Origin: Candidatus Dormiibacterota bacterium
GTDB taxonomy: Bacteria; Chloroflexota; Dormibacteria; UBA8260; Bog-877
Length of the DNA stretch: 24,309 nt
Assembly: GCA_003164475.1 (NCBI GenBank)
Contig: PLTL01000390.1
Coordinates: forward strand, 1-24,309
Direction of reading: 5' to 3'
The position numbers and the translations under genes were made by a program. The notes under the pieces were generated by a model. The model had not been told where the DNA came from and searched no databases. It was given only the letters and a program-made list of their open reading frames with translations. Each line of letters opens with the position of its first letter. The first letter of the stretch is position 1. Positions 1 to 18,058 of the stretch are shown here, piece by piece.

Positions 1-475
1 GGCGGGGATCGACCGAGCCCAGCACCGCGCATCCGAAGATCGGCTCGGGACTGCGGATGGAGTGGCCGCCGGCGATCGCGCAGCCGGCTTCGGCCGCCAC
101 CTCCGCGCCCCCCTCGAGGATCTGCCGGAGGATCTGCCCGTCGAGGTTGGCCAGGTCGAAGCCCACCAGGTTCAGGAGCAGGAGGGGAGTGCCACCCATC
201 GCGTAGATGTCGGAGAGGGCGTTGGCGGTGGCGATGCGACCGTAGTCGCGGGGATCGTCGACTGGGGGCGGGAAGAAGTCGGTGGTGGCGACCACGGCCA
301 GGCTGTCGCCAACCCGGTATACGGCTGCATCGTCCATGGTCTCGGCCGAGACCAGCAGGTCGCCGCTCGCCGGGGAGGCGATCCCGGCCAGGATGGAGGC
401 CAGGTCGGCCTGGGCGATCTTGGCGGAACACCCGCCCTGCCCGGTGAGCTCTGTCAGTCGCACGGATCCCGCCAC
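1..475 (-). CDS. selD: Selenide, water dikinase (selenophosphate synthase), 3' end outside window
   Basis: SelD makes selenophosphate from selenide and ATP in the cytoplasm; it supplies selenium for selenocysteine, selenouridine or the labile selenium of some molybdenum hydroxylases. About 158 N-terminal residues are visible. The start RLTELTGQGGCSAKI matches the SelD opening, with Cys16 and Lys19 at the places of E. coli Cys17 and Lys20. They are followed by the MDDAAVY metal/ATP segment, TTDFFPPPVDDP, the YGRIATANALSDIYAMGG core, and AGGHSI. I chose the GTG at 475 because AAGGAG lies five bases upstream; an ATG just before it is in another frame and stops after eight codons. The gene lies 53 bp after the upstream deaminase, so it is probably the distal gene of the leftward operon. 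The catalytic position is a plain Cys codon (TGT), not a selenocysteine TGA. The family call is firm; whether this SelD serves only the hydroxylases depends on the rest of the genome. Confidence 0.95.
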   Translation of the reverse strand, partial: MAGSVRLTELTGQGGCSAKIAQADLASILAGIASPASGDLLVSAETMDDAAVYRVGDSLAVVATTDFFPPPVDDPRDYGRIATANALSDIYAMGGTPLLLLNLVGFDLANLDGQILRQILEGGAEVAAEAGCAIAGGHSIRSPEPIFGCAVLGSVDPR

Positions 476-528
476 GCCATCTCCTTCACCCTCGCACAGG
501 ACGGCACCCGCAGCCGTGGCCCAACCGG

Positions 529-1911
529 CTACAGCACCGGCCAGCGTGGGCCGGGGTCGATTCCGGTGGACCGGTAGAGCCGCCCAGCTCGCTCCCGGGC
601 CTGAGCCACCGCTCTCTCCTCGTCGATGGTGAGCAACCGCCCATCCCGGACCAGCCACCTGCCATCGACCATCACCGAGTCCACGTCAGCCCCGGTGGAG
701 GCGTAGACCAGCGAGGAGACCGGGTTGAGGCCGGGCGCCATGTGGGCGCGCTCACGGTCGACGACCACCAGGTCAGCCTTCTTGCCCACCTCGAGCGAAC
801 CGATCTCGTGCTCCCAGCGCAGCGCCTTGGCTCCATTGATCGTGGCCATCTCCAGCACCGTCTCCGCGGGCACGACGGTGGGGTCCCGTGAGACCGCCTT
901 GTGAACCAGGGCCGCCAGCTTCATCTCCGCGAGGAGGTCGTAGGTGTTGTTGCTGGGACCTCCGTCGCAGCCGAGGGCCACGTTCACCCCGGCTGCCAGC
1001 AGCTTGGGGACCGGGCAGACCCCCGAGCCCAGCTTGGAGTTGGAGGAGGGGTTGTGGGACACGCTGGTGCCGGTCTCGGCCAGGATGCGAATGTCCTGGT
1101 CATCGATCCACACCATGTGCACCAGGACCACGTCAGGACCCACCAGGCCCACGCTGCGGGCGAACTCCACGGGAGACATCTGGTACGTCTGGCGCAGGAA
1201 CTGGCGGTCCGCCTCGATCTCGGCCAGGTGCATGGTGATCTCCATGCCCCGGCTCCGGGCCTCGGACACCATCTCCCGGTAGAGCTCGGGAGACACCCCC
1301 CCCGGGGTCCGGGGGCCGAAACCGACGTGGATCCGGCCGTCGGCCGCCCCGTCCCAGCGGTCGAACATGTCGAGCGTGGTCAGCAGGCTCTCCTCGCGGG
1401 TCTCGCGCAGCCCCATCGGCATGGCGTTGTCCTGGGTTGCGTAGGTGGCGATGTCCATCACCTTCTTGGTCAGGCAGGCGCGGATGCCGGTGTCGACGAC
1501 CACTTGGGCCACTCCGTCGAAGCCGTACCGATGCGCCAGGCCCGACTCCAGAAACGTGGTGGTGCCGGACCTCAACATCTCGGCGATGCAGAGGCGGGCG
1601 CTGACCACGCCATCCTCGTGGTCATAACTGCCCTGCAGCACCCACACCCGCTCGCAGAGCCATTGGACCAGCGCCATGTCGTCAGCGCAATCGCGGATCA
1701 TCGCCTGCGCTTCGTGGACGTGGGTGTCGACCAGCCCGGGGATGATCAGCTTGCCGGCGAGGTCGATCTGCTCCTCATCAGGATAGGCGCGCAGAACCTC
1801 GTCGGCCGGGCCCACCGCCGCGATGCGGTCCGCCCGCGCCACCAGCGCGCCGCGGCGAAAGATCCTGCGCCCGGGATCCACCGTGATGATCGTCGCCCCG
1901 TTCAAGAGCAT
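529..1911 (-). CDS. COG0402-type amidohydrolase, probable purine (guanine-like) deaminase
   Basis: A 460-residue protein of the ATZ/TRZ/guanine-deaminase superfamily, metal-dependent TIM-barrel enzymes that deaminate heterocycles. Visible ligands are His64 and His66 (DTHVHEAQ), His228 and the proton-shuttling Glu231 (MHLAEIEAD), His265 (LVHMVWID), the HNPSSNSKLGSG loop at about 286, and Asp316 (ALGCDG). The C-terminal composite beta domain ends the protein (GSLEVGKKADLVVVD). I chose the ATG at 1911, which follows AGGAGG by six bases; the frame remains open to 2007 but that extension has no family similarity. It lies 64 bp after ssnA and 53 bp before selD in the same direction. Substrate cannot be read from sequence: guanine, 8-oxoguanine, an adenosine-like base, or a ring-opened purine intermediate are all possible. 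Family call firm, substrate open. Confidence 0.88.
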   Translation of the reverse strand: MLLNGATIITVDPGRRIFRRGALVARADRIAAVGPADEVLRAYPDEEQIDLAGKLIIPGLVDTHVHEAQAMIRDCADDMALVQWLCERVWVLQGSYDHEDGVVSARLCIAEMLRSGTTTFLESGLAHRYGFDGVAQVVVDTGIRACLTKKVMDIATYATQDNAMPMGLRETREESLLTTLDMFDRWDGAADGRIHVGFGPRTPGGVSPELYREMVSEARSRGMEITMHLAEIEADRQFLRQTYQMSPVEFARSVGLVGPDVVLVHMVWIDDQDIRILAETGTSVSHNPSSNSKLGSGVCPVPKLLAAGVNVALGCDGGPSNNTYDLLAEMKLAALVHKAVSRDPTVVPAETVLEMATINGAKALRWEHEIGSLEVGKKADLVVVDRERAHMAPGLNPVSSLVYASTGADVDSVMVDGRWLVRDGRLLTIDEERAVAQARERAGRLYRSTGIDPGPRWPVL

Positions 1912-1975: not shown

Positions 1976-3346
1976 TCAATCCATGACCGCCCGGTGCCAC
2001 AGGGCACCGGCGCGCTCCCGGCTGCGGGCGGCGATCTCCTCCTCGTCGAGGCCGACCAGCTCCCGCCGTCGCATCAGCCACCGCCCCGCCACCATCGTGT
2101 CGGAGACCTGGCAGCCATCCGCTCCGGCGACGATATGTCCGCCCACGTTGCTGGCGGTGAGCGGCGTGGGCGCCCGGTAATCCAGGAGCACCAGGTCCGC
2201 TGGTCCTCCCACCCGCAGCTGCCCCAGCGGCCCCAGTTGGGGGACGAAGGGAGCGAAGAGCGAGTCGCAGATCCGCCCGCCGCCGGAGAAGGCGAGCGCC
2301 ACCACCTCATCCGGCGGCAGCAGCCGGGGATCCCGGCCGGTCAGCCGGGCCTGTGACTGAGCGGCGCGCATCTCCTCGAACATGTTCATGCTGACGCCGT
2401 CGGTGCCCAGCCCGATCGTCACCCCGGCCTGGCGGAGCGCGGTGATCGGGGCGCTGCCCACCGCGTTGCCCATGTTGGAGCGGGGGTTGTGCGCGACCGC
2501 CACCCCGGCCTGGGCCAGCTCGGCGATCTCGCGGCCGTCGACGTGGACGCAGTGGGCGGCGAGCGACCCGGGGCCCAGCACGCCGTGGGCCACCAGGTGC
2601 GGTACGACGCGACTGGCGAAGCGACGCTGACAGTCCTCCTGATCGACCGGGCCCTCGGCGACATGCACGTGGCAGCCCACCCCCTGCGCCGCGCCCAGGT
2701 CAGCGCAGGCGGACAGGGTCGCGGGGCTCAGGGTGAATGAGGCATGCAGCCCCACGGCCGCGGCCAGGCGGCCCCCCGGAGCGGCGGTTGGGGAGCGCAG
2801 GGAACTAATGAAACGCGCGTTCTCACGGATCCCCGCCTCGGTGTCGGCCGTGCCGTTGCGCGCCGACACCTCGTAGGCGAGGCACGCGCGCAGCCCCGAG
2901 GCCTCCACCGCGGTGGCGATCACGTCCAGGCTGCCGTCCACGCAGGATGGGCTGGCATGGTGGTCGACCAGGGTGGTGACGCCGTGCCGAATCGCGTCGA
3001 CCAGACTCACCTCGGCGCTGGAGGCGATGTCCGCCGGGGTGAGGAGGCGGTCCAAGCGCCACCACAGCCCTTCCAGGATCTCCTGGAAATCCCGCGGCGG
3101 GTCCCCGGGAAGGGCCATGCCGCGGGCGAACGCGGAGTACAGATGGGTGTGCGTGCAGAGCATCCCCGGCAGGCACAGGCCGCCCTCCGCATCCACCAGC
3201 TCGGCCTCCGGATGTTCGGCCGTCAGTGAGCTCGAACCGATGGCCCCGATCCGGCCATCCGCCACCAGGATCGCCCCGTTCTCCACCAGGGGGGCGCGCT
3301 CGTCCATGGTCACCACGGTGGCATTGGCGATGCAGATCGGCTTCAC
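1976..3346 (-). CDS. ssnA: SsnA-family aminohydrolase of the selenium-dependent purine locus
   Basis: A 456-residue COG0402 aminohydrolase close to E. coli SsnA (about 442 aa). SsnA-specific stretches are LCTHTHLYSAFARGM, LWWRLDRLLTPADI, LVDHHASPSCVDGSLDVI, HNPRSNMGNAVG and DYRAPTPLTASNVGGHI. Metal and catalytic residues are His66, His68, His228, Glu231, His265 and Asp316. SsnA genes occur beside xdhD, ygfM, ygeX and yqeB, and the family is a marker of selenium-dependent molybdenum hydroxylase loci. It is required in the anaerobic urate-degradation cluster of gut bacteria, probably as a ring hydrolase or deaminase; the exact reaction here is inference. I chose the GTG at 3346: homology begins there ([10 protein letters not shown]) and an AGGGGG lies six bases upstream. 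The reading frame stays open to 3628, but that part is low-complexity Arg/Pro/Gly sequence without family similarity. Confidence 0.92.
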   Translation of the reverse strand: MKPICIANATVVTMDERAPLVENGAILVADGRIGAIGSSSLTAEHPEAELVDAEGGLCLPGMLCTHTHLYSAFARGMALPGDPPRDFQEILEGLWWRLDRLLTPADIASSAEVSLVDAIRHGVTTLVDHHASPSCVDGSLDVIATAVEASGLRACLAYEVSARNGTADTEAGIRENARFISSLRSPTAAPGGRLAAAVGLHASFTLSPATLSACADLGAAQGVGCHVHVAEGPVDQEDCQRRFASRVVPHLVAHGVLGPGSLAAHCVHVDGREIAELAQAGVAVAHNPRSNMGNAVGSAPITALRQAGVTIGLGTDGVSMNMFEEMRAAQSQARLTGRDPRLLPPDEVVALAFSGGGRICDSLFAPFVPQLGPLGQLRVGGPADLVLLDYRAPTPLTASNVGGHIVAGADGCQVSDTMVAGRWLMRRRELVGLDEEEIAARSRERAGALWHRAVMD

Positions 3347-3576
3347 CGCGGCCCCCTGGGGATCGTGACCGGAGATCGCAGGGGTGGCGGAGGAGCGGGC
3401 CAGCGGGTGTCGACCTGGTCGCAGGAAGATGCGGCAGACCGCGCCGGCCGCCCCTCCCCCTCCCGGCTGGAAGCGGTTGGCGCTGCCCTTGTCCAGGCTG
3501 CAGCGGGCGGCGCCCCGCGATGGAGCCGGACGGGCTCCACCGCCTCCTGGCGGCGTATGTCGCGGTCCGAACTCAT
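3343..3576 (-). CDS. Possible 77-residue small ORF bridging the LLM gene and ssnA
   Basis: This open frame fills the 226-bp gap between the LLM oxidoreductase and ssnA exactly. Its ATG overlaps the LLM stop as ATGA (3576-3573), and its TGA overlaps the ssnA GTG as GTGA (3346-3343). That is the same coupling style used elsewhere in the locus, for example at 9147 and 14391. The product would be basic and rich in Arg, Pro, Ala and Ser, with no domain, signal peptide or membrane segment that I recognise. Against it: 17 of 77 codons end in A or T, clearly more than in neighbouring genes, and long stop-free frames are common at this GC. It could equally be an untranslated spacer with hairpins. Confidence 0.25.
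3521..3553 (-). other. Adjacent hairpins in the LLM-ssnA spacer
   Basis: Two stem-loops lie back to back, starting about 20 nt past the LLM stop on the transcribed strand. One has a 5-bp stem (3540-3544 with 3549-3553, loop TCCT on the + strand). The other has a perfect 7-bp stem, TGGAGCC with GGCTCCA (3521-3527 with 3533-3539, loop GGACG). A weaker GCGGG/CCCGC pairing follows near 3503-3518. No U run follows, so this is not a standard intrinsic terminator. An mRNA-processing or stability element within the operon is possible, as is chance in GC-rich DNA. Confidence 0.35.
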
Positions 3577-4625
3577 GGCGCCGGGTTCGCCTGACCGCCG
3601 GCCCCGGAACCGGGGGTGACACCCTCAAGGCCGCCGGCGAAGAGGTCGATCATGGCCCGAACGTCCGGACCCAGCGGGTACAGCACCGGGCAGGTGCAGC
3701 CGCTGGCGACGTACTCGGCAACCTTGGCCCGGCACTCGTCGGGCGTCCCGGAGGCGCTGAGCATCTGCACCACGTCATCGGGCACCAGGTGGGCGGCCTC
3801 CACCACCTCCGCATGGGTGGCCGGCCAGTGCAGCACCGCGGCGATGCGGTCGAGCAGGTCCTGGGGTACGCCCGACGCCTTCATGAGATGGGGCTGCTGG
3901 CCCAGGTACTGGGTGATCAGCAGGCGCGCCGCATCCAGCGCCACCCGGCGGTCCCGGTCCAAGGAGCAGATGACCAGCTGGGGACGGTCGACGTCCGCGA
4001 CCCCGCGGCCGGCCCGCGCCGCCCCTTGTTGCAACTGCTCCAGCGCCTGGCGGGTGTAGCCGGGTGACACCAGGTAGTTGAGCAGGACCCCATCAGCTAT
4101 CTCCCCCGCCAGCTCCATCATCCGCGGCCCGGTGGCGCCGATGTAGATCGGTACCGCCTTGGGTCGCCGCTCCTGATGCACGTAGTCCAGCTCCACCGCG
4201 TCGAGGTGGACGAACTCTCCCTGGAAGGTCACCGACCCGCCCGCCAGCAGAGCTCGGACCGTGGTCACCGTCTCTCTCATGGCGACCACCGGCCGGGAGC
4301 GCTGGATGCCGACGCGGCTGGCCAGGGGGTCCCACCAGTCACCGATCCCGAGCATGACCCGACCCGGCGCCAGGTCGTCCAGGGTGGAGAAGGTGGAAGC
4401 CAGCAGCGCGGTGTTGCGCGTCCACCGGTTGACCACGCCGCTGCCCACCAGGATCCGCTCGGTCGCGGTGAGGAACGCGGCCATGGGTACCGTCGCCTCC
4501 CGGGCCAGCCGGCTCTCGGCCTGCCATACCGCGGAGAAGCCATTGGCTTCGGCGTACTGGGCCAGGGTGATCCCCTGGCGCACGGAGTGGGCGTCCTGAA
4601 GGTAGAGGGCGACGGGGACGGTCAC
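3573..4625 (-). CDS. LLM class (luciferase-like, F420/FMN-type) oxidoreductase
   Basis: A 350-residue TIM-barrel flavin/deazaflavin enzyme of the bacterial luciferase-like family, nearest in feel to the Mer-like F420-dependent reductases. Family features are the N-terminal ALYLQDAH strand, [15 protein letters not shown] at about 34-48, the [18 protein letters not shown] segment at about 60-77, [16 protein letters not shown], and the cofactor-phosphate region [20 protein letters not shown] followed by [10 protein letters not shown]. The GTG at 4625 is the only good start near the homology; a purine-rich GGGGGAAG lies about eight bases upstream. It sits between the ygeX-type lyase and ssnA, so it probably acts on a purine-ring intermediate. 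LLM enzymes can cleave or reduce heterocycles: RutA opens uracil and Mer reduces a methylene-pterin. Cofactor (F420 or FMN) and substrate are not determined by what I can see. Confidence 0.88.
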
Positions 4626-4738
4626 GACCGCTTCCCCCTACGCGGGCGCTGGCCCGGCCGGCGGCGGCCGCCGAGTGGCTCTGGGGATCCGTGGTGGTGC
4701 CCGCCGGCACCACCGAGAGATTGGGTGTCTGATCTCAT
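4622..4738 (-). CDS. Possible 38-residue leader ORF coupled to the LLM gene
   Basis: ATG at 4738 follows AAGAAGG by eight bases, and the frame ends in a TGA that overlaps the GTG of the LLM gene (GTGA, 4625-4622). The peptide is Gly/His-rich in the middle and Arg/Pro-rich at the end, with no recognisable domain. Ten of 38 codons end in A or T, more than in the flanking genes, and a 9-bp hairpin lies inside it. A translated leader controlling the LLM gene is possible; a chance open frame is at least as likely. Confidence 0.22.
4693..4714 (-). other. Perfect 9-bp stem-loop upstream of the LLM gene
   Basis: GGTGGTGCC (4693-4701) pairs with GGCACCACC (4706-4714) across a four-base loop. It lies in the 189-bp gap between the diaminopropionate lyase and the LLM oxidoreductase, about 70 bp before the LLM start. 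On the transcribed strand no U run follows, so it does not look like a terminator. It may be a processing or stability element, or part of the putative leader ORF. Confidence 0.4.
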
Positions 4739-4814
4739 GAAATGCACCTTCTTGGGACGCGCCGACGGTTCCGGTCGCCAATTGTGCGGATGGGTCGCAC
4801 CGTCCTTGCTTCTC

Positions 4815-6177: not shown

Positions 6178-9147
6178 CTACCCGTCCTCGCCGGCGGGCG
6201 CCGCGGCCGCGCTCTGGAGCGCAGCCCACACCCGCGGTGGGGTGAGCGGGATCTGGCGGATGCGGACGCCAGTGGCATCAGCCACCGCATTCGCCACCGC
6301 CGGGGCCACCCCGTCCAACGGGATCTCGGCGACCGCCTTGGCCCCGTAGGGACCGAAGGGGTCATGGGTCTCGACCAGATAGGTATCCATCGAGGGCATG
6401 TCCTGGGCGCCGAAGATCCGGTACTCGGCCAGATCGGTGGTCAGCAGTCGGCCGGCGCCGTCGTAGAGCATCTCCTCGCTGACGGCGTAGCCGAGCGCCT
6501 GGGTGACGCCGCCGTCCACCTGGCCCTCGGCGGTGGCCGGGTTGATGGCGCGCCCGCAGTCGACCGCGGACACCACCCGCAGGACCGTCACCGCCCCGGT
6601 CTCGGTGTCGACCTCGACCTCAACGAACTGGGCCGCGAACGGCGGCGGCGAGTTGTTGCTCATGTAGGAGGCGGTGGCCATGATCTGATGCTGGTCCTCG
6701 ACGTGCAGGGAGTGCAGCGCGACCTCTGAGACACTGACCCCCGGCCCTTCCGGGCTGCTCACGATCCGGTTGGCGCACTGCAGCCGGTCCGGGGCAGTGC
6801 CGAGCATGGCGCCGGCCACCGCGAGGATCTGCGTCCGCGCCCGTTCCGCCGCCAGCTTCACCGCTCCGCCGGAGATGTAGGTGGTGCTGGAGGCGTAGGC
6901 CCCGGTGTCGAAGGGGGTGAAGTCGGTGTCGGAGGAATGGATGATGATGTCCTCGAGCGGGACCCCGAGAACCTCGGCGGCGATCTGGGCCAGCACCGTG
7001 TCGGATCCGGTGCCGAGATCGGTCGCCCCCACCAGCAGGTTGAAGGACCCGTCGTCGTTGAGCTTGATGCTGGCGGCACCCATGTCCAGGCCGGCGATGG
7101 CGGTCCCGTGCATGGCGATCGCCATGCCGATCCCGCGTCGGAGGGGCCCGCGATCGGCTCCTTTCCGCCTGCGCTCCCAGCCGATCGCCGCCGCCCCCTT
7201 CTCCATGCAGTCCACCAGCCCACAGCTCTCGATGATCTGAGGCAGGCCCTCCTTGCCCTCGCCGAGCGCCTCCGCCAGGATGTTCTGGTCCCCCACGCGC
7301 ACGCAGTTCTGGAGGCGCAGGACCAGCGGATCCATTCCCAGGCGGCGCGCCACCTCATCGATCTGGCTCTCCAGGGCGAAGAAACCCTGGGGCGCGCCGT
7401 AGCCCCGAAAAGCACCGGCGGGGGGAAGGTTGGTGTACACGACGTCGGCCACGAAGCGCACGTTGGGGACTCGGTAGATGGGAAGCGACTTGGAGCCGGT
7501 GTTGCCCTGCACGGTGAGGGCGTGAGTCCCGTAGGCGCCGGTGTTGCCGAGGACGTACATGTCGTTGGCCACGATGGTGCCGTCGCGGTTGGCCCCGGTG
7601 CGCAGGCGGATGCGCTGCGGGTGGCGCGAGCGGCTGCTGCGGAACTCCTCAGCCCTGGTGTACTCGAGCCGCACCGGCCGGTTGGTCGCCATGGTCAGGT
7701 GGGCGCAGATGTCCTCGATCAGCACCTCCTGCTTGACCCCGAAGCCACCGCCGATCCGTGGCTTGATGACCCTGATCCGCCGCGGTGGCAGGCCGATCAC
7801 GGGCGCGATGATGCGGCGGACGTGGTAGGGCACCTGGGTGCTGGTGCGCACCACCATGCGCTCATCCTCATCCCAGTAGGTGATGACGATGTGATTCTCC
7901 AGGGGAGTCTGCTGTACCTGGGGCACCAGGTACTCCGCCTCGACCACCAGGTCGGCCTCCGCCAGCGCCTTCTCCACATCCCCCACCTCGGCCTCGATGC
8001 GGGCGGCGAGGTTCCGGTCTCGGTCCTCGATGTGATAGGCCTCCGGCTCGGGATGGATGCAGGGCGCCCCGGGCCGCATCGCCTCTTGCGGATCCAGGAC
8101 TGCGGGCAGGATCTCGTAGTCCACCTCTATCAGCTGGAGCGCCCGCTCGGCGATCTCCTCGGTGTCGGCGGCGACCGCGGCGACGCGATCTCCGACGAAC
8201 CGGACCACCGAGTCCAGGCTGAACTGGTCATGAGGGCCCGGTTCGGGCCAGGACTGGCCCGCAGAGGTGTACACGACGCGGGGCAGGTCCGCGTAGGTGA
8301 GCACGGCGTGGACGCCGGGCAGGCCCCGGGCGGCGCTGACGTCGATTCGGCGCAGGCGCGCGTGGGCATGGGGGCTGGTCAACAGCTTGGCGTGGAGCAG
8401 GCCCCGGAGCTCGACGTCGTCCACGAAGCTGGGACTGCCCGCGGTCAGCTTGGGGGCGTCGACCTTGCGCTCGCGCTTTCCCACCACCTGCAGCTGCTCG
8501 GCCGGACGGGCCGGGGGCGCGCCCGACTCCGGCTGCCGGTTGCGGCCCTGTCGGTCGCCCGGCCCGGTGGAGCCGTCATCCCCGTCATCCCCGCCGTCCG
8601 GCTGCCGCGGATCGGCGATACGGGGAGCCCACGGGTGCCCCGCATCCAGTGGCCTGAGGGCACCTGGCGGCCCCGCGCCGGGAGCATCTCCCCGCATCAC
8701 CGCCGCCGCCTGGAGAATCGCCTCAACCGGCTTGAGGTAGCCGGTGCACCGGCAGAGGTTGCCTGACAGGGCGTCCCGGACCTCGGCCTCGGAGGGGTTG
8801 GGCTCGCGGTCCAGCAGGGCCTTGGCCCCGAGGACCATCCCGGGGATGCAGAAGCCGCACTGCACCGAGCCGTTGTCCACCAGAGCTTGCTGGATCGGGG
8901 TCAGCCCCGTGGACCGTCCCAGGCCCTCGACCGTGGTCAACCGGCGCCCCTGGGCCTGGGCCGCCAACATGACGCAGGTCACGCGCGGCACCCCGTCGAC
9001 GAGGACGGTGCACACACCGCACTCCCCGGTCTCGCATCCGTGCTTGACACTGAAGACGCCGGCGGAGCGCAGAGCCTTCAGCAGGGAGGTGTTGGGGGCG
9101 ACCTCAAGCTCCAGGGAGCTGCCATTGAGCTCGCAGCGGAGCTTCAT
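6178..9147 (-). CDS. xdhD: Fused 2Fe-2S/molybdenum hydroxylase, XdhD-like (selenium-dependent xanthine dehydrogenase type)
   Basis: A 989-residue fusion of the iron-sulfur and molybdenum-cofactor parts of the xanthine dehydrogenase family, the same layout and about the same size as E. coli XdhD (956 aa). Residues 1-150 bind two 2Fe-2S clusters: Cys38, 43, 46 and 58 (plant-ferredoxin type), then Cys97, 100, 132 and 134 (CGFC...CRC). Residues 155-225 form a Gly/Asp/Arg/Pro-rich linker. The molybdopterin part follows with RIGGGFGVKQE, AFRGYGAPQGFFALE, DLGTGSDTV and the active-site GAKAVAE with Glu941. The loop AFRGYGAPQG is not that of CO dehydrogenase. Its ATG overlaps the upstream FAD-subunit stop (ATGA), so the two are coupled and likely form one enzyme. 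The likely reaction is hydroxylation of purines such as xanthine or hypoxanthine. A labile selenium at the Mo site is inferred from selD and yqeB nearby, not visible in the protein. Confidence 0.92.
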   Translation of the reverse strand: MKLRCELNGSSLELEVAPNTSLLKALRSAGVFSVKHGCETGECGVCTVLVDGVPRVTCVMLAAQAQGRRLTTVEGLGRSTGLTPIQQALVDNGSVQCGFCIPGMVLGAKALLDREPNPSEAEVRDALSGNLCRCTGYLKPVEAILQAAAVMRGDAPGAGPPGALRPLDAGHPWAPRIADPRQPDGGDDGDDGSTGPGDRQGRNRQPESGAPPARPAEQLQVVGKRERKVDAPKLTAGSPSFVDDVELRGLLHAKLLTSPHAHARLRRIDVSAARGLPGVHAVLTYADLPRVVYTSAGQSWPEPGPHDQFSLDSVVRFVGDRVAAVAADTEEIAERALQLIEVDYEILPAVLDPQEAMRPGAPCIHPEPEAYHIEDRDRNLAARIEAEVGDVEKALAEADLVVEAEYLVPQVQQTPLENHIVITYWDEDERMVVRTSTQVPYHVRRIIAPVIGLPPRRIRVIKPRIGGGFGVKQEVLIEDICAHLTMATNRPVRLEYTRAEEFRSSRSRHPQRIRLRTGANRDGTIVANDMYVLGNTGAYGTHALTVQGNTGSKSLPIYRVPNVRFVADVVYTNLPPAGAFRGYGAPQGFFALESQIDEVARRLGMDPLVLRLQNCVRVGDQNILAEALGEGKEGLPQIIESCGLVDCMEKGAAAIGWERRRKGADRGPLRRGIGMAIAMHGTAIAGLDMGAASIKLNDDGSFNLLVGATDLGTGSDTVLAQIAAEVLGVPLEDIIIHSSDTDFTPFDTGAYASSTTYISGGAVKLAAERARTQILAVAGAMLGTAPDRLQCANRIVSSPEGPGVSVSEVALHSLHVEDQHQIMATASYMSNNSPPPFAAQFVEVEVDTETGAVTVLRVVSAVDCGRAINPATAEGQVDGGVTQALGYAVSEEMLYDGAGRLLTTDLAEYRIFGAQDMPSMDTYLVETHDPFGPYGAKAVAEIPLDGVAPAVANAVADATGVRIRQIPLTPPRVWAALQSAAAAPAGEDG

Positions 9148-11840: not shown

Positions 11841-11906
11841 TCGACCAGTGCCACTCCGGCGGCACAGGCGTTCGTCGTGGGTGACCCCTCGGTTGAAGCC
11901 GATCAG

Positions 11907-11912
11907 TATAAT
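11907..11912 (+). promoter_or_regulatory. Consensus-like -10 box (TATAAT)
   Basis: A perfect TATAAT stands out in otherwise GC-rich DNA in the divergent gap, reading toward the yqeB operon. No convincing -35 lies at 16-18 bp: TTGAAG is only eight bases away, and GTGACC is 20 bases away. The opposite strand reads TATACT at nearly the same place, which could serve the adenine deaminase operon. A promoter with an activator or a non-standard -35 is plausible. Confidence 0.4.
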
Positions 11913-12063
11913 TCTGGGATGTCTGCCAGAGGATCGCGGGCTGCCTCCGGGAATTGGTGGCGCGCCCTCGGGTCGGCCAGCATCACGCGGGGCTGGTGGC
12001 CCTGGCGGGTGGCGTCGGCAGGGCCGCCTTGGCGTCGGTCGCGACTCACAAGGTGGCCATGAC

Positions 12064-12987
12064 TTGACGGCTGCGGTCGGCGAGATCTATCTCGACCGAG
12101 GCCGGGCGGCAGCACCAGTTTCCCCAACCACCGTGCTGGTGGGGGTGCGCGGTGCGGGGGAGATGGCCACCGGGGTCATCCACCGCCTGCGCCGGTCGGG
12201 GTTCCCCGTGGTGGCTGCGGAGATGGAGCAGCCGACGGTCGTTCGCCGCTCGGTGGCCTTCGCCAGCGCGGTCTGGGAGGGCCGCGTGGAGGTGGAGGGA
12301 GTCACCGCGGTGAGGGTCGACGACGGTGAGGGTGCGGCGGCGGCGTTGGGCTTGGGGCAGGTGGCCATCCTCGTGGACCCCAGCGCGGAGCTGCTGCTGG
12401 GGCTTCGCCCCCAGGTGCTGGTGGACGCCATCCTCGCCAAGCGCAATTGCGGCACCCGGCGGGCCGACGCTCCGCTGGTGATCGGGCTCGGCCCGGGGTT
12501 CACCGCCGGGGACGATGTCGACGCCGTGGTCGAGACCAATCGGGGCCATCACCTCGGCCGTGTCCTGCTTCGGGGCAGCGCCCAGCCCAACACCGGGGTC
12601 CCCGCGCCTGTCGGCGGGCACAGCGCTGACCGGGTCCTGCGGGCGCCGCGCCCGGGCCGCCTGCTGGGGTGCCAGCGCATCGGCGATGAGGTGGCGGCCG
12701 GCACCGTGGTGGCAAGCGTGGATGGAGAGCCGGTGGTTTCGAGCATCGCGGGGACGCTGCGGGGCCTCCTGCATGACGGGGTGGAGGTCAGCAGCAACAT
12801 GAAGGTCGGCGACGTCGACCCCCGCGCCGTCCCCGAATACTGCTTCACGATCTCCGACAAGGCCCGCGCCCTGGGGGGGGCGGTGCTGGAGGCAATCCTG
12901 ATGCTCTATCCTCTCGCCGCCCAGCGCCCGGCCGGCGAGGTCGATGCCCTGACGGTGGCCGGCGGCGGGTGGCCAGGAACATGTTGA
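12064..12987 (+). CDS. yqeB: YqeB/EF2563-family selenium-dependent molybdenum hydroxylase system protein
   Basis: A protein of about 307 residues of the EF2563/YqeB family, found almost only in genomes with selD and selenium-dependent molybdenum hydroxylases. It is thought to help insert or handle selenium for these enzymes; the reaction is not known. Family stretches are VRGAGEMATGVIHRLRRSGF, EQPTVVRRSVAFASAVWEG, VDAILAKRNCGT, PLVIGLGPGFTAGDDVDAVV, ETNRGHHLGRV, GSAQPNTG and SDKARALGGAVLEAIL. Homology starts at about 12133. I chose the TTG at 12064 because AAGGTGG lies seven bases upstream; the in-frame GTG at 12133 has no ribosome site but would give a protein nearer the usual 265 residues. 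It heads the rightward operon and overlaps the next gene by a few bases. The function is certain only at family level. Confidence 0.88.
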   Translation: MTAAVGEIYLDRGRAAAPVSPTTVLVGVRGAGEMATGVIHRLRRSGFPVVAAEMEQPTVVRRSVAFASAVWEGRVEVEGVTAVRVDDGEGAAAALGLGQVAILVDPSAELLLGLRPQVLVDAILAKRNCGTRRADAPLVIGLGPGFTAGDDVDAVVETNRGHHLGRVLLRGSAQPNTGVPAPVGGHSADRVLRAPRPGRLLGCQRIGDEVAAGTVVASVDGEPVVSSIAGTLRGLLHDGVEVSSNMKVGDVDPRAVPEYCFTISDKARALGGAVLEAILMLYPLAAQRPAGEVDALTVAGGGWPGTC

Positions 12988-13853
12988 GAATCGACGCCTA
13001 CCACCGGCCTGCCACGCTCGACCTGGCGCTGGCACTGATGACGGAGGGCCGGACCGTCGTGGCGGGCGGGACCGACCTCCTGGTCAATCCTCGCTACCTG
13101 GTTGGGGTCACCGAGGTGGTGGACCTCGGTGACCTGCCGCTGGACTTCGTGGAGGTGGAACCGGACCTGATCCGCATCGGCGCCAATGCCACCATGGCCA
13201 GGGTGGCCGCCTCGCCGGAGGTTCGTGCCCTGGCTGACGGCATCGTCAGCCGGGGAGCGGCGGTCTGTGGGTCGCCCAACATCCGCAACATGGCGACCCT
13301 GGTCGGCAACGTGGCCTCCGCGCTTCCGTCCTCCGACACTCCGCCACCCCTCCTGGTCCTGGGGGCCCGGGTGGTGCTGCGGAGCCGCAGCGCCACCCGC
13401 CGGTTGGCGCTGGAGGAGTTCTTCCTCGGACCGGCGGTCAGCGCGCGTCGCCCGGATGAGCTGGTCGAGAGTGTGGAGATTCCCCGTCCGCGGCCCGGCA
13501 CCAGGGGTGGCTTCTACAAGGTAAAGCGCACCGCCGACGACATCGCCATCGTCAACAGCGCGGCCTGCCTGTGTGTCGAAGAGGGGCGGATAGCCTTCGC
13601 CCGAGTGGTGGTGGGAGCGGTGGCGCCCGTCCCGCTGGGGATTGCGGCTGCGGAGCAGCACCTGCTCGGTCGGCAGCCAAGCGAAGAGGTGCTCGCGGAG
13701 GCCGGCCGCCTCGCGGCCGCCGCCGCCCGGCCCATCACCGACCAGCGGGCGACGGCGGAGCATCGACGCCATCTGGCCGGGGTCTGCGCGACTCGTGCCC
13801 TGCGCCAGGCGGCGGGGCTGGATCCCCACGGCGCGGAGCTGGAGCATGCCTGA
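12981..13853 (+). CDS. FAD-binding subunit of the second molybdenum hydroxylase
   Basis: A 290-residue flavin subunit of the CoxM/XdhB family. The FAD motifs are clear: VVAGGTDLLVNPR at about 26-38, and GSPNIRNMATLVGNVASALP at about 97-116 followed by SSDTPPPLLVLGA. The C-terminal flavoprotein domain carries GGFYKVKRTADDIAIVNSAA. The ATG at 12981 is preferred over an in-frame GTG four codons upstream because AGGA lies just before it; either start overlaps the end of yqeB. Its own end overlaps the 2Fe-2S gene by eight bases. The operon order FAD, FeS, Mo is that of three-subunit hydroxylases, so this should be the electron-output subunit of a complex with the next two products. Confidence 0.92.
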   Translation: MLRIDAYHRPATLDLALALMTEGRTVVAGGTDLLVNPRYLVGVTEVVDLGDLPLDFVEVEPDLIRIGANATMARVAASPEVRALADGIVSRGAAVCGSPNIRNMATLVGNVASALPSSDTPPPLLVLGARVVLRSRSATRRLALEEFFLGPAVSARRPDELVESVEIPRPRPGTRGGFYKVKRTADDIAIVNSAACLCVEEGRIAFARVVVGAVAPVPLGIAAAEQHLLGRQPSEEVLAEAGRLAAAAARPITDQRATAEHRRHLAGVCATRALRQAAGLDPHGAELEHA

Positions 13854-14394
13854 GCCGACCCCGGTCACCATCGAGTGCACGGTCAACGGCCGGCTGCACC
13901 GCTGGCAGTCGCCGCCCGGGGCCACCCTGCTGGAGGCCCTCCGGGAGGCCCACGTGCGGGGGCCCAAGCTGGTGTGTGGCACCGGCGACTGCTGCGCCTG
14001 TGGAGTCATGCTCAACGGGCGTTCGGTGAACTCCTGCTGCACCCTGGCGGCCCAGGCCGCGGGGGCGACCGTGCTCACCGTGGAGGGTTTGGCCGAGGAT
14101 GGCCAGCTTCATCCCCTCCAGGCTGCCTTCCTGGAGACCGGCGCGGCCCAATGCGGCTTCTGCACCCCCGGCCTCCTCATCCGCGCCTACGCGCTCCTGC
14201 AGGCCCAGCCCGATCCTGACGAGGCGGCGGTGCGGGTCGCCCTCGGTGGCAACATCTGCCGCTGCACCGGCTACGTCAAGCCGGTGGAGGCCGTGTTGGA
14301 GGCAGCCAGGCGGATGCGGGCGGCGGCGGCGGATGCCACCCGCCAGGGGTCGGTCGAGCCCGGACTGCCCGCCTCGGACTCCGCCCTCCGATGA
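13846..14394 (+). CDS. 2Fe-2S subunit of the second molybdenum hydroxylase
   Basis: A 182-residue iron-sulfur subunit (CoxS/XdhC-small type) that carries electrons from the Mo site to FAD. Residues 1-80 form the ferredoxin-like domain with Cys44, Cys49, Cys52 and Cys64. Residues 85-155 form the four-helix domain with Cys103, Cys106, Cys138 and Cys140 (CGFCTPG and ICRCTGY). The first cluster motif contains extra cysteines (GDCCACG, NSCC) next to the ligands. A 25-residue low-complexity tail follows. The ATG at 13846 lies within the last codons of the FAD gene, after GGAG, and the stop overlaps the next start as ATGA. The family call is certain. Confidence 0.94.
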   Translation: MPEPTPVTIECTVNGRLHRWQSPPGATLLEALREAHVRGPKLVCGTGDCCACGVMLNGRSVNSCCTLAAQAAGATVLTVEGLAEDGQLHPLQAAFLETGAAQCGFCTPGLLIRAYALLQAQPDPDEAAVRVALGGNICRCTGYVKPVEAVLEAARRMRAAAADATRQGSVEPGLPASDSALR

Positions 14395-16868
14395 GCACCC
14401 GCACGCCACCACGCAGCGCCCCGCCGGGCGCGCCGGGCGTCGCCCCGCCCCTGCGCGTGGTCGGCAGGGGGCTGCCCCGGGTCGACGGGCGGGCCCTGGT
14501 CACGGGCAGCCCCGTGTACACGGCGGACATGGACGTGCCGGACATGCTCCACGGCAAGATCCTGCACTCGCCGCTGGCCCATGCCCGGATCGTGGCCATC
14601 GACACCGGCGCCGCTCGGGCCCTGCCGGGGGTTCGCGCGGTGCTGACCCACTTAGACGTGCCCGCGATCCTTCACGCCACCGCCGGCCAACCCTTCCCGG
14701 AGCTATCGCCCTACGACACCCGACTGCTCGATCCCCACCTGCGCTATGTCGGGGACTGGGTCGCCCTGGTGGCGGCCGAGAGCGAGGCCATCGCGGAGGC
14801 GGCGCTGGCGCTGATCAAGGTGACCTACCAGGAGCTGCCGGCAGTGTTCGACCCCGTCGAGGCGATGCGCGACGGCGCCCCTAAGCTCCACGAGCCCGAC
14901 GTCGCCCACCCGCTCTTCGAGCGGTCGCCCGGGCCCACCTATGACGCGCGGCACAACATCGCCGGCCACGAGGAGATCTGGCGCGGGGCCGACTTCGCGA
15001 CCACCATGGCCGCGGCCGACCACATCGTCACCGGGACCTACCACACTCCGCGGATCGCCCACTGCGCGCTGGAGCCCCACGTGGCGATCGCCCACGCCGA
15101 CGGATACGACCGGCTCAACGTTTGGAGCAGCACCCAGGTCCCATACCACACCCGCCGTCAGCTGGCCCGGGTCCTCCAGTGGCCGGTCTCGCGCATCCGC
15201 GTGATCAAGCTGCGCGTGGGCGGCGGCTTCGGCGGGAAGCAGGAGATGGTGCTCGAGCCCGCGGTCGCGGTCCTGGCGATGGCCACCGGACGACCGGTGC
15301 GGATCCTCTACAGTCGCCAGGAGGAGTTTGCCGCCAGCCGGGTCCGGCACCCGATGACCATTCACATGCGCTCTGGGGTGGCCAGCGACGGGACCCTTCT
15401 CGCCCTGGAGATGCGCGTCATCTCTGACACCGGGGCCTACGGGGGGCACGGTCTGACGGTGGCCCAAGGGGCTGGTCACAAGACGCTCTGTCTCTACCGG
15501 GCCCGCGCCTATCACTTCGTGGCCGACGCGGTCTACACCAACTCGCCGGTGTCGGGAGCGATGCGCGGCTACGGGGCACCCCAGGGGTACTTCGCACTGG
15601 AGTCGCACATGGACGAGATCGCGGCCAGGCTGGGGCTGGACCCCCTCGACTTCCGCCGCCGCAACCATGTCCGCCGGGGCGACTACGACCCCATCAATCT
15701 GGACTCCTCCTCAGGAGCGCCGCGGTCACAGCGGCACTTTCGCTCCTGTGCCCTGCCGGAGTGCCTCACCCGGGGCGCCGAGGCGATCGGCTGGGACCTG
15801 CCGTTCGATCGTGGTCAGGGGGTCGTGCGGCGCGGCCGTGGCCTGGCCACCGCCATGCAGGGCAGCGGCGTCGCCGGTTCAGAGCTGGGCGGGGCTAGCA
15901 TCAAGATGAACGAGGACGGCTCCTTCAACGTGATGACCGGGGCCACCGACATCGGCCAGGGCAGCGACACCGTCCTGGCTCAGATCGCGGCCGAGACCCT
16001 CGGCGTCGGGCTGGACAAGATCATCATGCACTCGTCCGACACTGACATCGACGTGTTCGACTACGGCTCCTACGCCTCCTCCACCACCTTCGTCACCGGC
16101 ACCGGGGTGCGGCTGGCCGCCGAGGCGGTCCGGGACCAGATCCTGGCGGTGGCGGCCCGGATGACGGGGTGCCCCGCCGCCGACCTGCACCTGGAGGATG
16201 GGCGTGTCCACGCCGCCGGTGGGCCCCTCGGGCTCACCCTGGCCGAGGTGGCGCTAGAGACCCTCTACGGTTCCCGGCGACAGCAGATCATGGCCAGCGG
16301 GCACGCCTCCTGCCATGACTCGCCTCCACCCTTCCACGCCCAGTTCGTGGAGATTGCCGTCGACTGCGAGACGGGCCAGATCCGGGTTGAACGCTCCGTC
16401 AATGCCATCGACATGGGTCGGGCCATCAACCCCCGCCTCGCCAGCGGCCAGGTGGAGGGGGCGATCGCGATGGGGCTGGGATTCGCGCTCAGCGAGGAGC
16501 TGCTGATGGACGAGCGCGGGCAGGTCCGCAATCCCGCCTTCGTCGATTACAAGGTGCTCTCCTGCCTCGACATGCCCGCCATGACCACCATCCTGGTGGA
16601 CGACCCTGAGCCCACCGGTCCCTTCGGGGCGAAGTCCTGCGGCGAGGTCCCGATCAACACCCCGGCTCCGGCCGTGGCCAACGCCCTCTTTGATGCGCTG
16701 GGCATCCGGGTGCGCAGTCTGCCGATCACCGCCGAGAAGGTGCTGGCCGCCCTCCGGGCCAGGGACTCTGCGCCGACCGGGCCGGTCGCTCACCCCGGTG
16801 GCCCCTTCGCTCCTCAGGACGGCGCGAGGCACCAGTCGGTGCCCGGGGGCCCCGGCCCGGGATCGTGA
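14391..16868 (+). CDS. Molybdenum-cofactor subunit of xanthine dehydrogenase-family hydroxylase
   Basis: An 825-residue molybdopterin subunit. The N-terminal aldehyde oxidase/xanthine dehydrogenase domain (RVDGRALVTGSPVYTADM) is followed by the large Mo domain with LRVGGGFGGKQEM, AMRGYGAPQGYFALE, GATDIGQGSDTV, and GAKSCGE with active-site Glu752. The loop AMRGYGAPQG rules out CO dehydrogenase. Overall it resembles the molybdenum half of the XdhD-like protein in the facing operon (for example IIMHSSDTD against IIIHSSDTD), so the two are paralogues. The last 45 residues form a Pro/Gly-rich tail unlike the family. The ATG overlaps the 2Fe-2S stop. The substrate is likely a purine or related N-heterocycle. 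Dependence on selenium is inferred from yqeB and selD. Confidence 0.92.
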   Translation: MSTRTPPRSAPPGAPGVAPPLRVVGRGLPRVDGRALVTGSPVYTADMDVPDMLHGKILHSPLAHARIVAIDTGAARALPGVRAVLTHLDVPAILHATAGQPFPELSPYDTRLLDPHLRYVGDWVALVAAESEAIAEAALALIKVTYQELPAVFDPVEAMRDGAPKLHEPDVAHPLFERSPGPTYDARHNIAGHEEIWRGADFATTMAAADHIVTGTYHTPRIAHCALEPHVAIAHADGYDRLNVWSSTQVPYHTRRQLARVLQWPVSRIRVIKLRVGGGFGGKQEMVLEPAVAVLAMATGRPVRILYSRQEEFAASRVRHPMTIHMRSGVASDGTLLALEMRVISDTGAYGGHGLTVAQGAGHKTLCLYRARAYHFVADAVYTNSPVSGAMRGYGAPQGYFALESHMDEIAARLGLDPLDFRRRNHVRRGDYDPINLDSSSGAPRSQRHFRSCALPECLTRGAEAIGWDLPFDRGQGVVRRGRGLATAMQGSGVAGSELGGASIKMNEDGSFNVMTGATDIGQGSDTVLAQIAAETLGVGLDKIIMHSSDTDIDVFDYGSYASSTTFVTGTGVRLAAEAVRDQILAVAARMTGCPAADLHLEDGRVHAAGGPLGLTLAEVALETLYGSRRQQIMASGHASCHDSPPPFHAQFVEIAVDCETGQIRVERSVNAIDMGRAINPRLASGQVEGAIAMGLGFALSEELLMDERGQVRNPAFVDYKVLSCLDMPAMTTILVDDPEPTGPFGAKSCGEVPINTPAPAVANALFDALGIRVRSLPITAEKVLAALRARDSAPTGPVAHPGGPFAPQDGARHQSVPGGPGPGS

Positions 16869-18058
16869 CCAGCCCGCACCCGGATGGTGCTGCCGTCTTC
16901 GCCGTCCTCGGTGAGTTGCTGGCCCGGGGGGAGGCGGTGGCCCTGGCCACTATCGTCGGGCAGCGCGGCTCGACGCCGCGCGAGATCGGAACCAAGATGT
17001 TGGTCCGCTCGAACGGGGCCATCGTCGGCACCGTGGGCGGTGGAGCGGCCGAGGCGGAGGTCTGCCGGCAGGCGGCGGTGGTGCTGGAGAGCGGTCGGTC
17101 CCAGCTCCTCACCCTCGACTTCAACGGCACCCTGGAGCAGCCGGGGCTGGGCATCTGCGGGGGCAGCGTCGACGTGTTCATCGAGTCCTGGAGCAGCTGT
17201 CCCCCCCAGGCCGCGCCCGGCCCAGAGGCGGTCGGTGGGGCCGCGGAGGTTGTCCGCGCCGCAGTGGGCGCCCTGGAGGAGGGCCGTCCCGTCACCCTGG
17301 TCACGGTGATTGACGCCGAGGGCCGCTGGGCGGCCGCTGCCGGCGCGCGGATCCTTTTCGGCGACCGCGGGCCAGTCAGTGCGGTCACCGCCCCGGAGGA
17401 GCTGATGGCCCAGGCGGCGCTGGCCACAGTCGGCCCGCGGCCCGGGCCGACGGCAGGGACCTGGGTCCGGACGCTTACCGCGGGGGACGGCGCCGCGCAG
17501 GCCCGGGTCCTGGTCGAGCCGCTGCGCCCGCCGGAGGCGCTCCTCATCATGGGTGGCGGGCACATCGCCCAGCCCTTGGCCGCGATCGCCACCATCTGCG
17601 GCCTCGCCGTGACCGTTGTCGACGACCGCCCGGGCCTTGCCACCCCGGCCCGCTTCCCGGCGGCTCGAGCCGTGACGGCCGATGCGGCCAGCTTCCTGGC
17701 CCAGCGCCTCCCCGGGGCCGAGACCCATGTGGTGTTCGTGAGCCGGGGGCCAGCGCAGGACATGGCCGGGCTGCGGGCTCTCCTGAACTCCGCCGCCGGC
17801 GGTTACGTGGGGCTGATCGGCAGTGAACGCCGGGTCTGGTCCGTGCTCACGGCGCTCCGCGCCGAGGGCGTGCCAGCGGAACAGTTGGCCCGGGTCCACG
17901 GGCCGGTGGGGCTCGCCCTCGGCGGCACGTCACCGGCGGAGATCGCCCTGGAGATCATGGCCGAGATGCTGGGGTGGCGGCACCAGAGCACCGGTCAGGA
18001 GCGGTCGGCCCGCCTGCGCCGGCGCCTCCTCAGTCCGGTGGCGCCGGCCTCAGGCTGA
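16865..18058 (+). CDS. xdhC: XdhC/CoxI-family molybdenum hydroxylase maturation factor
   Basis: A 397-residue XdhC-family protein that binds molybdenum cofactor and delivers it, in sulfurated or here possibly selenated form, to the hydroxylase. The N-terminal XdhC/CoxI domain shows GQRGSTPREIGTKMLVRSNG and GTVGGGAAEAEV, with GICGGSVDVFIE. The C-terminal Rossmann-like domain shows LLIMGGGHIAQPLAAIA, VTVVDDRPGLATPARFP and HGPVGLALGGTSPAEIALEI. The GTG at 16865 overlaps the stop of the molybdenum subunit (GTGA), which makes this the last gene of the rightward operon. Its 3' end overlaps the convergent universal stress protein gene by 29 bp. No MocA-type cytidylyltransferase is in the window. Confidence 0.92.
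   Translation: MTSPHPDGAAVFAVLGELLARGEAVALATIVGQRGSTPREIGTKMLVRSNGAIVGTVGGGAAEAEVCRQAAVVLESGRSQLLTLDFNGTLEQPGLGICGGSVDVFIESWSSCPPQAAPGPEAVGGAAEVVRAAVGALEEGRPVTLVTVIDAEGRWAAAAGARILFGDRGPVSAVTAPEELMAQAALATVGPRPGPTAGTWVRTLTAGDGAAQARVLVEPLRPPEALLIMGGGHIAQPLAAIATICGLAVTVVDDRPGLATPARFPAARAVTADAASFLAQRLPGAETHVVFVSRGPAQDMAGLRALLNSAAGGYVGLIGSERRVWSVLTALRAEGVPAEQLARVHGPVGLALGGTSPAEIALEIMAEMLGWRHQSTGQERSARLRRRLLSPVAPASG

What the first reader, a model, noticed from the sequence alone, without database searches (positions are those of the whole stretch)
1..18058. Selenium-dependent purine-degradation locus rebuilt as two divergent operons in a GC-rich bacterium
selD, yqeB, ssnA, an xdhD-type fusion, FAD subunits, ygeX and xdhC all occur in one run, with adenine deaminase added. 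selD plus yqeB plus ssnA is the recognised signature of labile-selenium molybdenum hydroxylases, mainly known from Clostridia, Enterococcus and enterics. Here it lies in a lineage with LLM/F420-type and DevS-like proteins, with different gene order and without HyuA, YgeY, YgeW or YgfK in the window. That points to a variant of the urate/purine pathway.
Basis: partly seen in the sequence, partly recalled or inferred. Interest (0 to 1): 0.75.

Follow-up and report, generated by a model that had tools for sequence, protein, structure and literature searches.

The report
Selenium, molybdenum and F420 urate-degradation genes
A stretch of DNA from an uncultured bacterium, probably a relative of the Dormibacteria, carries a conserved pair of gene blocks that most likely breaks down purines and uric acid without oxygen, using a selenium-linked molybdenum enzyme and, at the key reducing step, an enzyme that seems to run on the rare cofactor F420.

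Summary
The gene list holds and the locus is conserved. Two other genomes (the only 2 of 110 in their class with yqeB) show the same divergent blocks: aminohydrolase-ssnA-LLM-ygeX-xdhD-FAD-adenine deaminase against yqeB-FAD-FeS-Mo-XdhC. Best reading: a variant of the published reductive uric acid pathway. The fused Mo protein falls in the XdhD clade and has the glutamate (EcXdhD Glu606) proposed to orient urate; the second Mo protein lacks it. Li et al. 2025 already predicted an F420-type yanthine reductase in Chloroflexota; I found no print of the F420-biosynthesis linkage. The relatives also hold YgeY, a putative UacY and a nucleobase permease; the window lost YgeY, leaving a remnant. Orphan selD is not supported: both relatives have tRNA-Sec and selB next to selD, one has selA. 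In the window selD sits in the purine block; its own genome is not held. Bound selenium and F420 use are untested. New variant of a known kind.

The parts
2..463 (-). selD, 5' part only (selenophosphate synthetase; Cys in LTELTGQGGCSAKI; GTG start assumed), downstream of the aminohydrolase gene
   Evidence: TIGR00476 199 bits over 125; 84% identical to G433 selD, which there lies behind selB
529..1911 (-). PF01979 aminohydrolase (guanine/8-oxoguanine/5'-deoxyadenosine-deaminase-like)
   Evidence: PF01979; best NCBIfam hits under cut-off; 83-88% in both relatives
1976..3349 (-). ssnA, aminohydrolase of the reductive uric acid pathway (start approximate)
   Evidence: NF005540 459 over 444; TIGR03314 429 under 455.5; 33% to E. 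coli SsnA
3573..4625 (-). LLM-class protein, putative F420H2-dependent yanthine reductase
4626..4814 (-). spacer holding a decayed remnant of the start of ygeY
   Evidence: 68% over 110 bp to G433 ygeY leader and first codons
4815..5960 (-). ygeX, diaminopropionate ammonia-lyase family
   Evidence: NF006058 357 over 276; 38% to E. coli YgeX
6178..9147 (-). XdhD-type fused [2Fe-2S]+Mo subunit, putative urate dehydroxylase; Glu630 (nt 7258-7260) aligns with EcXdhD Glu606
9144..10082 (-). FAD subunit (YgfM position)
   Evidence: PF00941 and PF03450
10082..11800 (-). adenine deaminase
   Evidence: TIGR01178 556 over 472.5
11801..12132 (.). divergent intergenic region; both relatives have an IclR-like regulator gene here
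12133..12987 (+). yqeB, putative selenium-cofactor maturation protein
   Evidence: TIGR03309 349 over 220; 284-aa homologue listed for this window
12969..13853 (+). FAD subunit of the second Mo hydroxylase
   Evidence: PF00941, PF03450
13849..14394 (+). [2Fe-2S] subunit of the second Mo hydroxylase
   Evidence: best NCBIfam hit NF041020 172 bits, under its cut-off of 290
14391..16868 (+). Mo subunit of the second hydroxylase, XdhA-like (Ser at the Glu606 column)
   Evidence: PF02738, PF20256
16865..18058 (+). XdhC/CoxI-family maturation protein; matches the N-terminal half of E. coli YqeB
   Evidence: PF13478, PF02625

Best explanation
The locus is a purine and urate degradation unit of the reductive, oxygen-independent type. 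Adenine is deaminated by Ade; the three-subunit XdhA-like hydroxylase links hypoxanthine/xanthine with urate; the XdhD-type enzyme with its FAD subunit reduces urate to yanthine (2,8-dioxopurine); the LLM protein, using F420H2, reduces the ring in place of YgfK/UacX; SsnA opens it; and YgeX ends the route by cleaving diaminopropionate to pyruvate. The hydantoinase and ureido-cleaving steps are not in the window: relatives keep YgeY and a putative UacY in the locus and a D-hydantoinase elsewhere. SelD and YqeB (with the separate XdhC part) probably put labile selenium on one or both Mo enzymes. Shown here: gene content, conservation, clade membership, the Glu606 column, the F420-type fold, linkage of LLM and F420 genes to ssnA in other Chloroflexota. 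Inferred: every reaction, the substrate, F420 use and selenium.
For: Same two blocks in G433 and G403. The window XdhD lies in a clade with E. coli XdhD (SH-aLRT 98) and has Glu at the 606 column, as do both relatives' XdhD; the three second Mo proteins have S, S and A. Glu in 19 of 54 Mo proteins examined, 18 of those 19 in loci with ssnA against 13 of the other 35 (Fisher p 3e-5). LLM: Mer is the best sequence and fold match; the 15 best rows by Z are F420 enzymes. In one draw of 400 Chloroflexota-phylum genomes ssnA and LLM occur together in 53, ssnA alone in 14, LLM alone in 6; within 20 kb on one contig in 31 genomes. Of 13 genomes fetched with LLM near ssnA, 11 have cofC, cofD, cofE and npdG-like genes there too (over cut-offs in G059); the two that do not are G403 and G433, which have cofD elsewhere (2 of 2 over cut-off). 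YgeY over cut-off in both relatives. dN/dS 0.09-0.57 in the 11 genes compared with G433. Nucleobase permease (PF02133) beside the locus in both relatives. Pathway chemistry: PMC12507026 (parts 1-3 of 7 read). yqeB deletion mimics selD loss for urate and xanthine growth in C. difficile (PMC11448449, passages).
Against: XdhD misses the TIGR03313 cut-off and SsnA misses TIGR03314. HyuA, YgeW/UacY and YgeY are not in the window, and ygeY is a remnant, so the route may be incomplete. No F420 biosynthesis gene is in the window or in the fetched G403 and G433 loci, and the window's genome is not held. YqeC, a proposed partner of YqeB, was not found in 2 of 2 relatives. Seven other ssnA loci have Mo proteins without the Glu. 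14 ssnA genomes lack LLM. The co-occurrence test is not corrected for kinship.
Confidence: 0.6

Rival explanations
1. Only the oxidative half works: adenine to urate through two ordinary xanthine-dehydrogenase-type enzymes for nitrogen, with LLM an unrelated FMN monooxygenase (RutA-like) and SsnA a plain deaminase.
Against: LLM is nearest to F420 enzymes, not RutA; LLM and ssnA travel together and with F420 genes; YgeX has no known use in the oxidative route (recalled); Glu606 column.
Confidence: 0.15
2. The Mo enzymes carry ordinary sulfur, and selD serves selenocysteine only; yqeB does something else.
For: Relatives have tRNA-Sec, selB and, in one, selA, with selD behind selB; active E. coli XdhD-YgfM was described in a paper whose main text has the word selenium only in a reference title (PMC12507026); YqeC missing.
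Against: In the window selD lies about 65 bp behind the aminohydrolase gene in the purine block, away from any selB; YqeB is over cut-off in the window and divergent with the locus in 3 of 3 genomes; yqeB loss mimics selD loss in C. difficile.
Confidence: 0.25
3. Orphan selD: the window organism has no selenocysteine or selenouridine system and selD serves the hydroxylases only.
For: selD sits in the purine block here but behind selB in both relatives; selU not found in 2 of 2 relatives.
Against: Both relatives have tRNA-Sec and selB; 14 of 14 other yqeB genomes searched have selB over cut-off.
Confidence: 0.15
4. A decaying locus: after loss of YgeY and the UacY candidate the organism no longer degrades urate and keeps the hydroxylases for another N-heterocycle.
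For: ygeY remnant; absence of ygeY, the UacY candidate, the cytosine-deaminase-like gene, the IclR-like gene and the permease from the window.
Against: The kept genes compared are intact and under purifying selection, LLM most of all; missing steps may be encoded elsewhere.
Confidence: 0.15

Closest known systems
Reductive uric acid degradation cluster of E. coli (xdhD-ygfM-ygfK-ssnA-hyuA-ygeW-ygeY-ygeX; PMC12507026; MG1655 locus L114)
   Same: XdhD-type fused Mo protein with the Glu606 residue, FAD subunit, SsnA, YgeX, YqeB, an aminohydrolase of the guanine-deaminase kind
   Different: LLM protein in place of YgfK; no HyuA, YgeW, YqeA or intact YgeY in the window; YqeB and XdhC parts are separate genes; adenine deaminase and selD added; two divergent blocks
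Chloroflexota variant predicted by Li et al. 2025 (SsnA with a luciferase-family, putative F420-dependent dehydrogenase)
   Same: ssnA with LLM, no YgfK or UacX
   Different: here with yqeB and selD, adenine deaminase and a second three-subunit hydroxylase; the paper's main text has no YqeB, and its four F420 mentions name no F420 biosynthesis genes
Selenium-dependent molybdenum hydroxylase loci (Haft and Self 2008, PMC2276186, parts 1-2 of 4 read; C. difficile, PMC11448449, passages)
   Same: selD, YqeB, SsnA, YgeX and XDH-type subunits together
   Different: YqeC not found in the window or in 2 of 2 relatives; XdhC and YqeB are separate genes; bound Se untested
F420-dependent methylenetetrahydromethanopterin reductase, Mer (1z69, 8qpl)
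   Different: bacterial, linked to purine genes; substrate predicted to be yanthine

Membership tests
Reductive uricolytic pathway | XdhD-type Mo protein with the Glu606 residue | tested here: met
   Glu630 aligned; XdhD clade SH-aLRT 98
Reductive uricolytic pathway | XdhD over the TIGR03313 curated cut-off | tested here: not met
   725 against 1101.9; so called XdhD-type only
Reductive uricolytic pathway | YgfK or UacX as ring reductase | tested here: not met
   no YgfK match in the window and no DHO_dh among the Pfam hits; LLM in its place
Reductive uricolytic pathway | SsnA | tested here: inconclusive
   over NF005540, under TIGR03314
Reductive uricolytic pathway | HyuA, YgeW or UacY, YgeY | tested here: not met
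   not found in the window; in relatives YgeY over cut-off, putative UacY, D-hydantoinase elsewhere
Reductive uricolytic pathway | YgeX family lyase | tested here: inconclusive
   over NF006058, under TIGR03528
Reductive uricolytic pathway | urate consumption, yanthine as intermediate | not testable with these tools
   needs enzyme or culture
Selenium-dependent molybdenum hydroxylase trait | YqeB (TIGR03309) | tested here: met
   349 over 220
Selenium-dependent molybdenum hydroxylase trait | selD in the genome | tested here: met
   partial selD at 2-463, 199 over 125
Selenium-dependent molybdenum hydroxylase trait | YqeC together with YqeB | tested here: not met
   0 of 2 relatives, none in the window (rest of its genome not held); no phenotype alone in C. 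difficile
Selenium-dependent molybdenum hydroxylase trait | labile selenium in the purified enzyme | not testable with these tools
   needs purified enzyme
F420-dependent LLM enzymes | sequence and fold nearest to F420 enzymes | tested here: met
F420-dependent LLM enzymes | F420 biosynthesis in the same genome | tested here: inconclusive
   cofD in 2 of 2 relatives; none in the window; window genome not held
F420-dependent LLM enzymes | F420 binding and hydride transfer | not testable with these tools
   needs purified enzyme
Orphan selD | no selA, selB, selC or selU in the genome | tested here: inconclusive
   relatives: tRNA-Sec 2 of 2, selB 2 of 2 (one a contig-edge piece), selA 1 of 2, selU 0 of 2; own genome not held

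The most novel reading that the evidence does not exclude
Dormibacteria-like and other Chloroflexota run reductive uricolysis on three rare cofactors at once: a labile-selenium molybdenum enzyme turns urate into yanthine and a Mer-like, F420H2-dependent yanthine reductase breaks the aromatic ring. Other Chloroflexota make and recycle F420 from the same gene run (ssnA-npdG-cofE-cofD-cofC-LLM, often followed by FAD, xdhD and yqeB), and in the window lineage selD has been moved from behind selB into the purine block, tying selenium activation to purine use.
Probability: 0.4. Interest if true: 0.72.

Novelty: new variant of a known kind. Interest (0 to 1): 0.55.

Why it matters
The reductive uric acid pathway was worked out only in 2025, and its F420 variant rests on a short prediction in that paper. 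The conserved gene runs found here give that prediction independent genomic support, name concrete genes to test (LLM with F420H2, yanthine and SsnA), place the pathway in a Dormibacteria-like lineage, and offer natural systems with yqeB but apparently no yqeC for asking how selenium gets onto molybdenum enzymes.

Tried and rejected
In-frame TGA in YqeB as selenocysteine: some Chloroflexota YqeB matches reported one stop inside; in the three checked (L085, L093, L094) it lies past the aligned YqeB body and is the ordinary stop. Viral contigs with YqeB: nothing. Among the 80 genome contigs fetched by YqeB none had the window's gene order. Remnants of the cytosine-deaminase-like gene, the PLP gene or the permease in the window: none. 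Remnant of the UacY candidate or the IclR-like gene: not clear. YgfK hidden in the window: no match. RutA as a model for LLM: fits less well than Mer. An Rfam scan and promoter scans of the window were not done. Two of three protein searches and one of two structure jobs were not used.

Alignment A2 held rows read on the wrong strand and was thrown away; A3 replaces it. The co-occurrence count took ssnA at E <= 1e-80 (67 of the 70 genomes) and LLM at E <= 1e-70 (59 of the 64); the dropped ones are weaker matches. That the three 400-genome draws are the same set is inferred from the handles, which lie in G001-G411. In one search loci L101 and L105 were marked as having ssnA by hand, because the ssnA of those contigs lies on L103 and L104; only ORFs of 500 codons or more with a long match to a window Mo protein were taken. 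The 11 loci of the F420-gene linkage were picked because ssnA (L163) or LLM and ssnA together (the ten others) had been found there. One of the 11 (L204) also shows a weak 26% YgfK match.

Full report
What is there. The window (71% G+C) holds two divergent gene blocks. On the minus strand, in reading order: adenine deaminase, FAD subunit, fused [2Fe-2S]+Mo subunit, YgeX-type lyase, LLM protein, SsnA, a PF01979 aminohydrolase and the first ~150 codons of selD. On the plus strand: yqeB, FAD, FeS and Mo subunits of a second hydroxylase, and an XdhC/CoxI-family maturation protein. Genes overlap at ade-FAD-xdhD and throughout the plus block, as in operons (coordinates). No whole genome is held for the window.

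Source. The best named YqeB homologues are from Candidatus Dormibacteria MAGs at 72% (names cut in the listing). A draw of 400 genomes of the Chloroflexota phylum found G403 at 66%, and its class of 110 genomes holds yqeB in only two, G403 and G433 (73%).

Conservation. G433 and G403 show the same two blocks in the same order: protein identities to the window (G433/G403) are 93/83% LLM, 88/83% aminohydrolase, 85/79% Ade, 85/80% XdhD, 84/81% second Mo protein, 80/70% SsnA, 77/72% YgeX, 74/67% YqeB, 61/54% FAD1. The 11 genes compared with G433 are under purifying selection (NG86 dN/dS 0.09 for LLM to 0.57 for FAD1; dS 0.43-0.60; no internal stop in the window). The relatives have more genes inside the blocks: a cytosine-deaminase-type amidohydrolase (NF006685 493 and 498 over 483) and YgeY (TIGR03526 428 and 434 over 321.5); an amidohydrolase between ygeX and xdhD that looks by eye like the D-aminoacylase-type UacY but matches only a general family under its cut-off (NF006560 204 and 183 under 340); an IclR-like regulator between ade and yqeB (matches under cut-offs); and a permease convergent with xdhC (PF02133 in G433; 79% identical in G403; TIGR00800 116 under 353). 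At the first four places the window has spacers of 223, 189, 217 and 332 bp, and at the last a universal stress protein. The spacer at the ygeY place still matches the ygeY leader and first codons of G433 (68% over 110 bp, E 6e-6 against five relative loci; 5e-8 in the direct comparison; MRSDTQSL against MRAATPFL), so ygeY was probably lost by deletion in the window lineage. This also argues against a simple assembly gap.

XdhD type. Li et al. 2025 (PMC12507026; parts 1-3 of 7 read, and passages) showed that E. coli XdhD-YgfM reduces urate to yanthine, and suggested that XdhD Glu606, absent from XdhA, helps to orient urate. In an alignment, the window's fused Mo protein (Glu630) and those of G433 and G403 have Glu at that column, in LGEGK as against E. 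coli IGEGK, while the three second Mo proteins have Ser, Ser and Ala and E. coli XdhA has a gap. Among 54 Mo proteins from the window and fetched loci, 19 have the Glu; 18 of these 19 lie in loci with ssnA, against 13 of the other 35; of those 13, six are second Mo proteins of a locus that also has a Glu type and seven are exceptions (Fisher p 3e-5, not corrected for kinship or for how the loci were chosen). A maximum-likelihood tree (quick mode, SH-aLRT) puts the window XdhD with G433 (97) and G403 (100), then with other Chloroflexota (99, 97), and with the enterobacterial and Aeromonas XdhD proteins at 98; one truncated Coriobacteriaceae protein without the Glu falls in that clade on a long branch; the second Mo proteins form their own clade (100) beside it (98). 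Both window Mo proteins keep the STQ, FRGYG/MRGYG and C-terminal Glu motifs of the family (their roles are recalled). The nearest solved chain to the window XdhD is 4-hydroxybenzoyl-CoA reductase (406 bits), ahead of xanthine dehydrogenases (278 bits); that enzyme is itself a reductive dehydroxylase (recalled).

Selenium. Both relatives have a tRNA-Sec by ARAGORN. G433 has selA and selB twice, and on contig C36 selD follows selB directly; G403 has the C-terminal part of selB at a contig edge with selD directly after it, and no selA found. selU was not found in 2 of 2. The 14 other yqeB genomes searched have selB over cut-off, 14 of 14. So in the lineage selD serves selenocysteine at least. In the window selD, 84% identical to that of G433, lies about 65 bp behind the aminohydrolase gene; its similarity to the relatives stops at its own start. 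Whether the window organism also has Sec genes cannot be told. YqeC was not found in 2 of 2 relatives (E. coli control positive). Reviews call YqeB plus YqeC the marker of the trait (PMC5029168 and PMC9312934, passages), but in C. difficile yqeB and not yqeC loss mimics selD loss on urate and xanthine (PMC11448449, passages), so this does not exclude it.

Missing steps. A D-hydantoinase (TIGR02033 583 and 575 over 393) is encoded elsewhere in both relatives. In G433 it lies beside an N-carbamoylputrescine-amidase-like protein (246 under 410), a TIGR03842 F420-LLM (570 over 295) and an NCS1 permease (TIGR00800 375 over 353); G403 has the first three by tblastn. This looks like a reductive pyrimidine route in which an F420 enzyme replaces PydA, and could lend its hydantoinase to uricolysis. 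Both points are inference.

Novelty. Li et al. [quoted passage not shown] A comment paper (PMC12990295, part 1 of 2 read) describes the pathway without this variant in the part read. Searches for F420 with uric acid and Chloroflexota (that one paper), F420 or yanthine (8 listed of 1,604), F420 with dihydropyrimidinase or luciferase-like (10 listed of 29), F420 biosynthesis with ssnA (none), coenzyme F420 with selenium and molybdenum hydroxylase (4 listed), Dormibacter with selenium (none) and Dormibacter with purine showed no other paper on this in the listings; an F420 review has no purine or xanthine (PMC8498797, passages). The library lacks most subscription journals. So the kind is known, the variant was predicted, and the linkage to F420 biosynthesis genes, the Dormibacteria-like locus, the selD placement and the ygeY loss seem unreported in what I could search.

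Verdict. A real, conserved, selenium- and F420-linked variant of the reductive uric acid pathway, shortened in this organism. Reactions, F420 use and selenium binding remain to be shown.

Noticed in passing
L163, L200-L209 (Chloroflexota G genomes): Gene runs ssnA-npdG-cofE-cofD-cofC-LLM, in seven loci with FAD and XdhD: F420 biosynthesis encoded with uricolysis genes.
   Followed up: partly
L110 4643-9871 (G433), L199 6800-10100 (G403): Conserved amidase-hydantoinase-F420-LLM (TIGR03842) set, with an NCS1 permease in G433 just upstream of selA-selB-selD: candidate F420-dependent reductive pyrimidine pathway.
   Followed up: partly
window 21237-21806 +: Second histidine-kinase piece whose ATPase part is in a different frame from the stretch before it: pseudogene or sequencing error.
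   Followed up: no
window 18030-18539 -: Universal stress protein (PF00582) sits where the relatives have the nucleobase permease.
   Followed up: no
window 18725-21162 +: GAF-GAF-HisKA_3 kinase and LuxR-type response regulator (DevS/NarX-like), not found next to the locus in the relatives.
   Followed up: partly
window 21997-24309 -: ADP-forming acyl-CoA synthetase, 5' cut by the window edge, with an N-terminal stretch that looks by eye like the end of an acetyltransferase domain.
   Followed up: no
G433 contigs C17 and C36: Two selA-selB pairs in one genome; mixture or duplication.
   Followed up: no
L150 13151-14266 - (G129): Alpha-hydroxyacid-oxidase-like FMN protein (by eye) between xdhD and the PLP genes of a uricolytic cluster that lacks LLM nearby.
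   Followed up: no
L113 576-2366 + (G433): Second XdhC and a MocA-like nucleotidyltransferase (under cut-off) beside another FAD-subunit-like gene.
   Followed up: no
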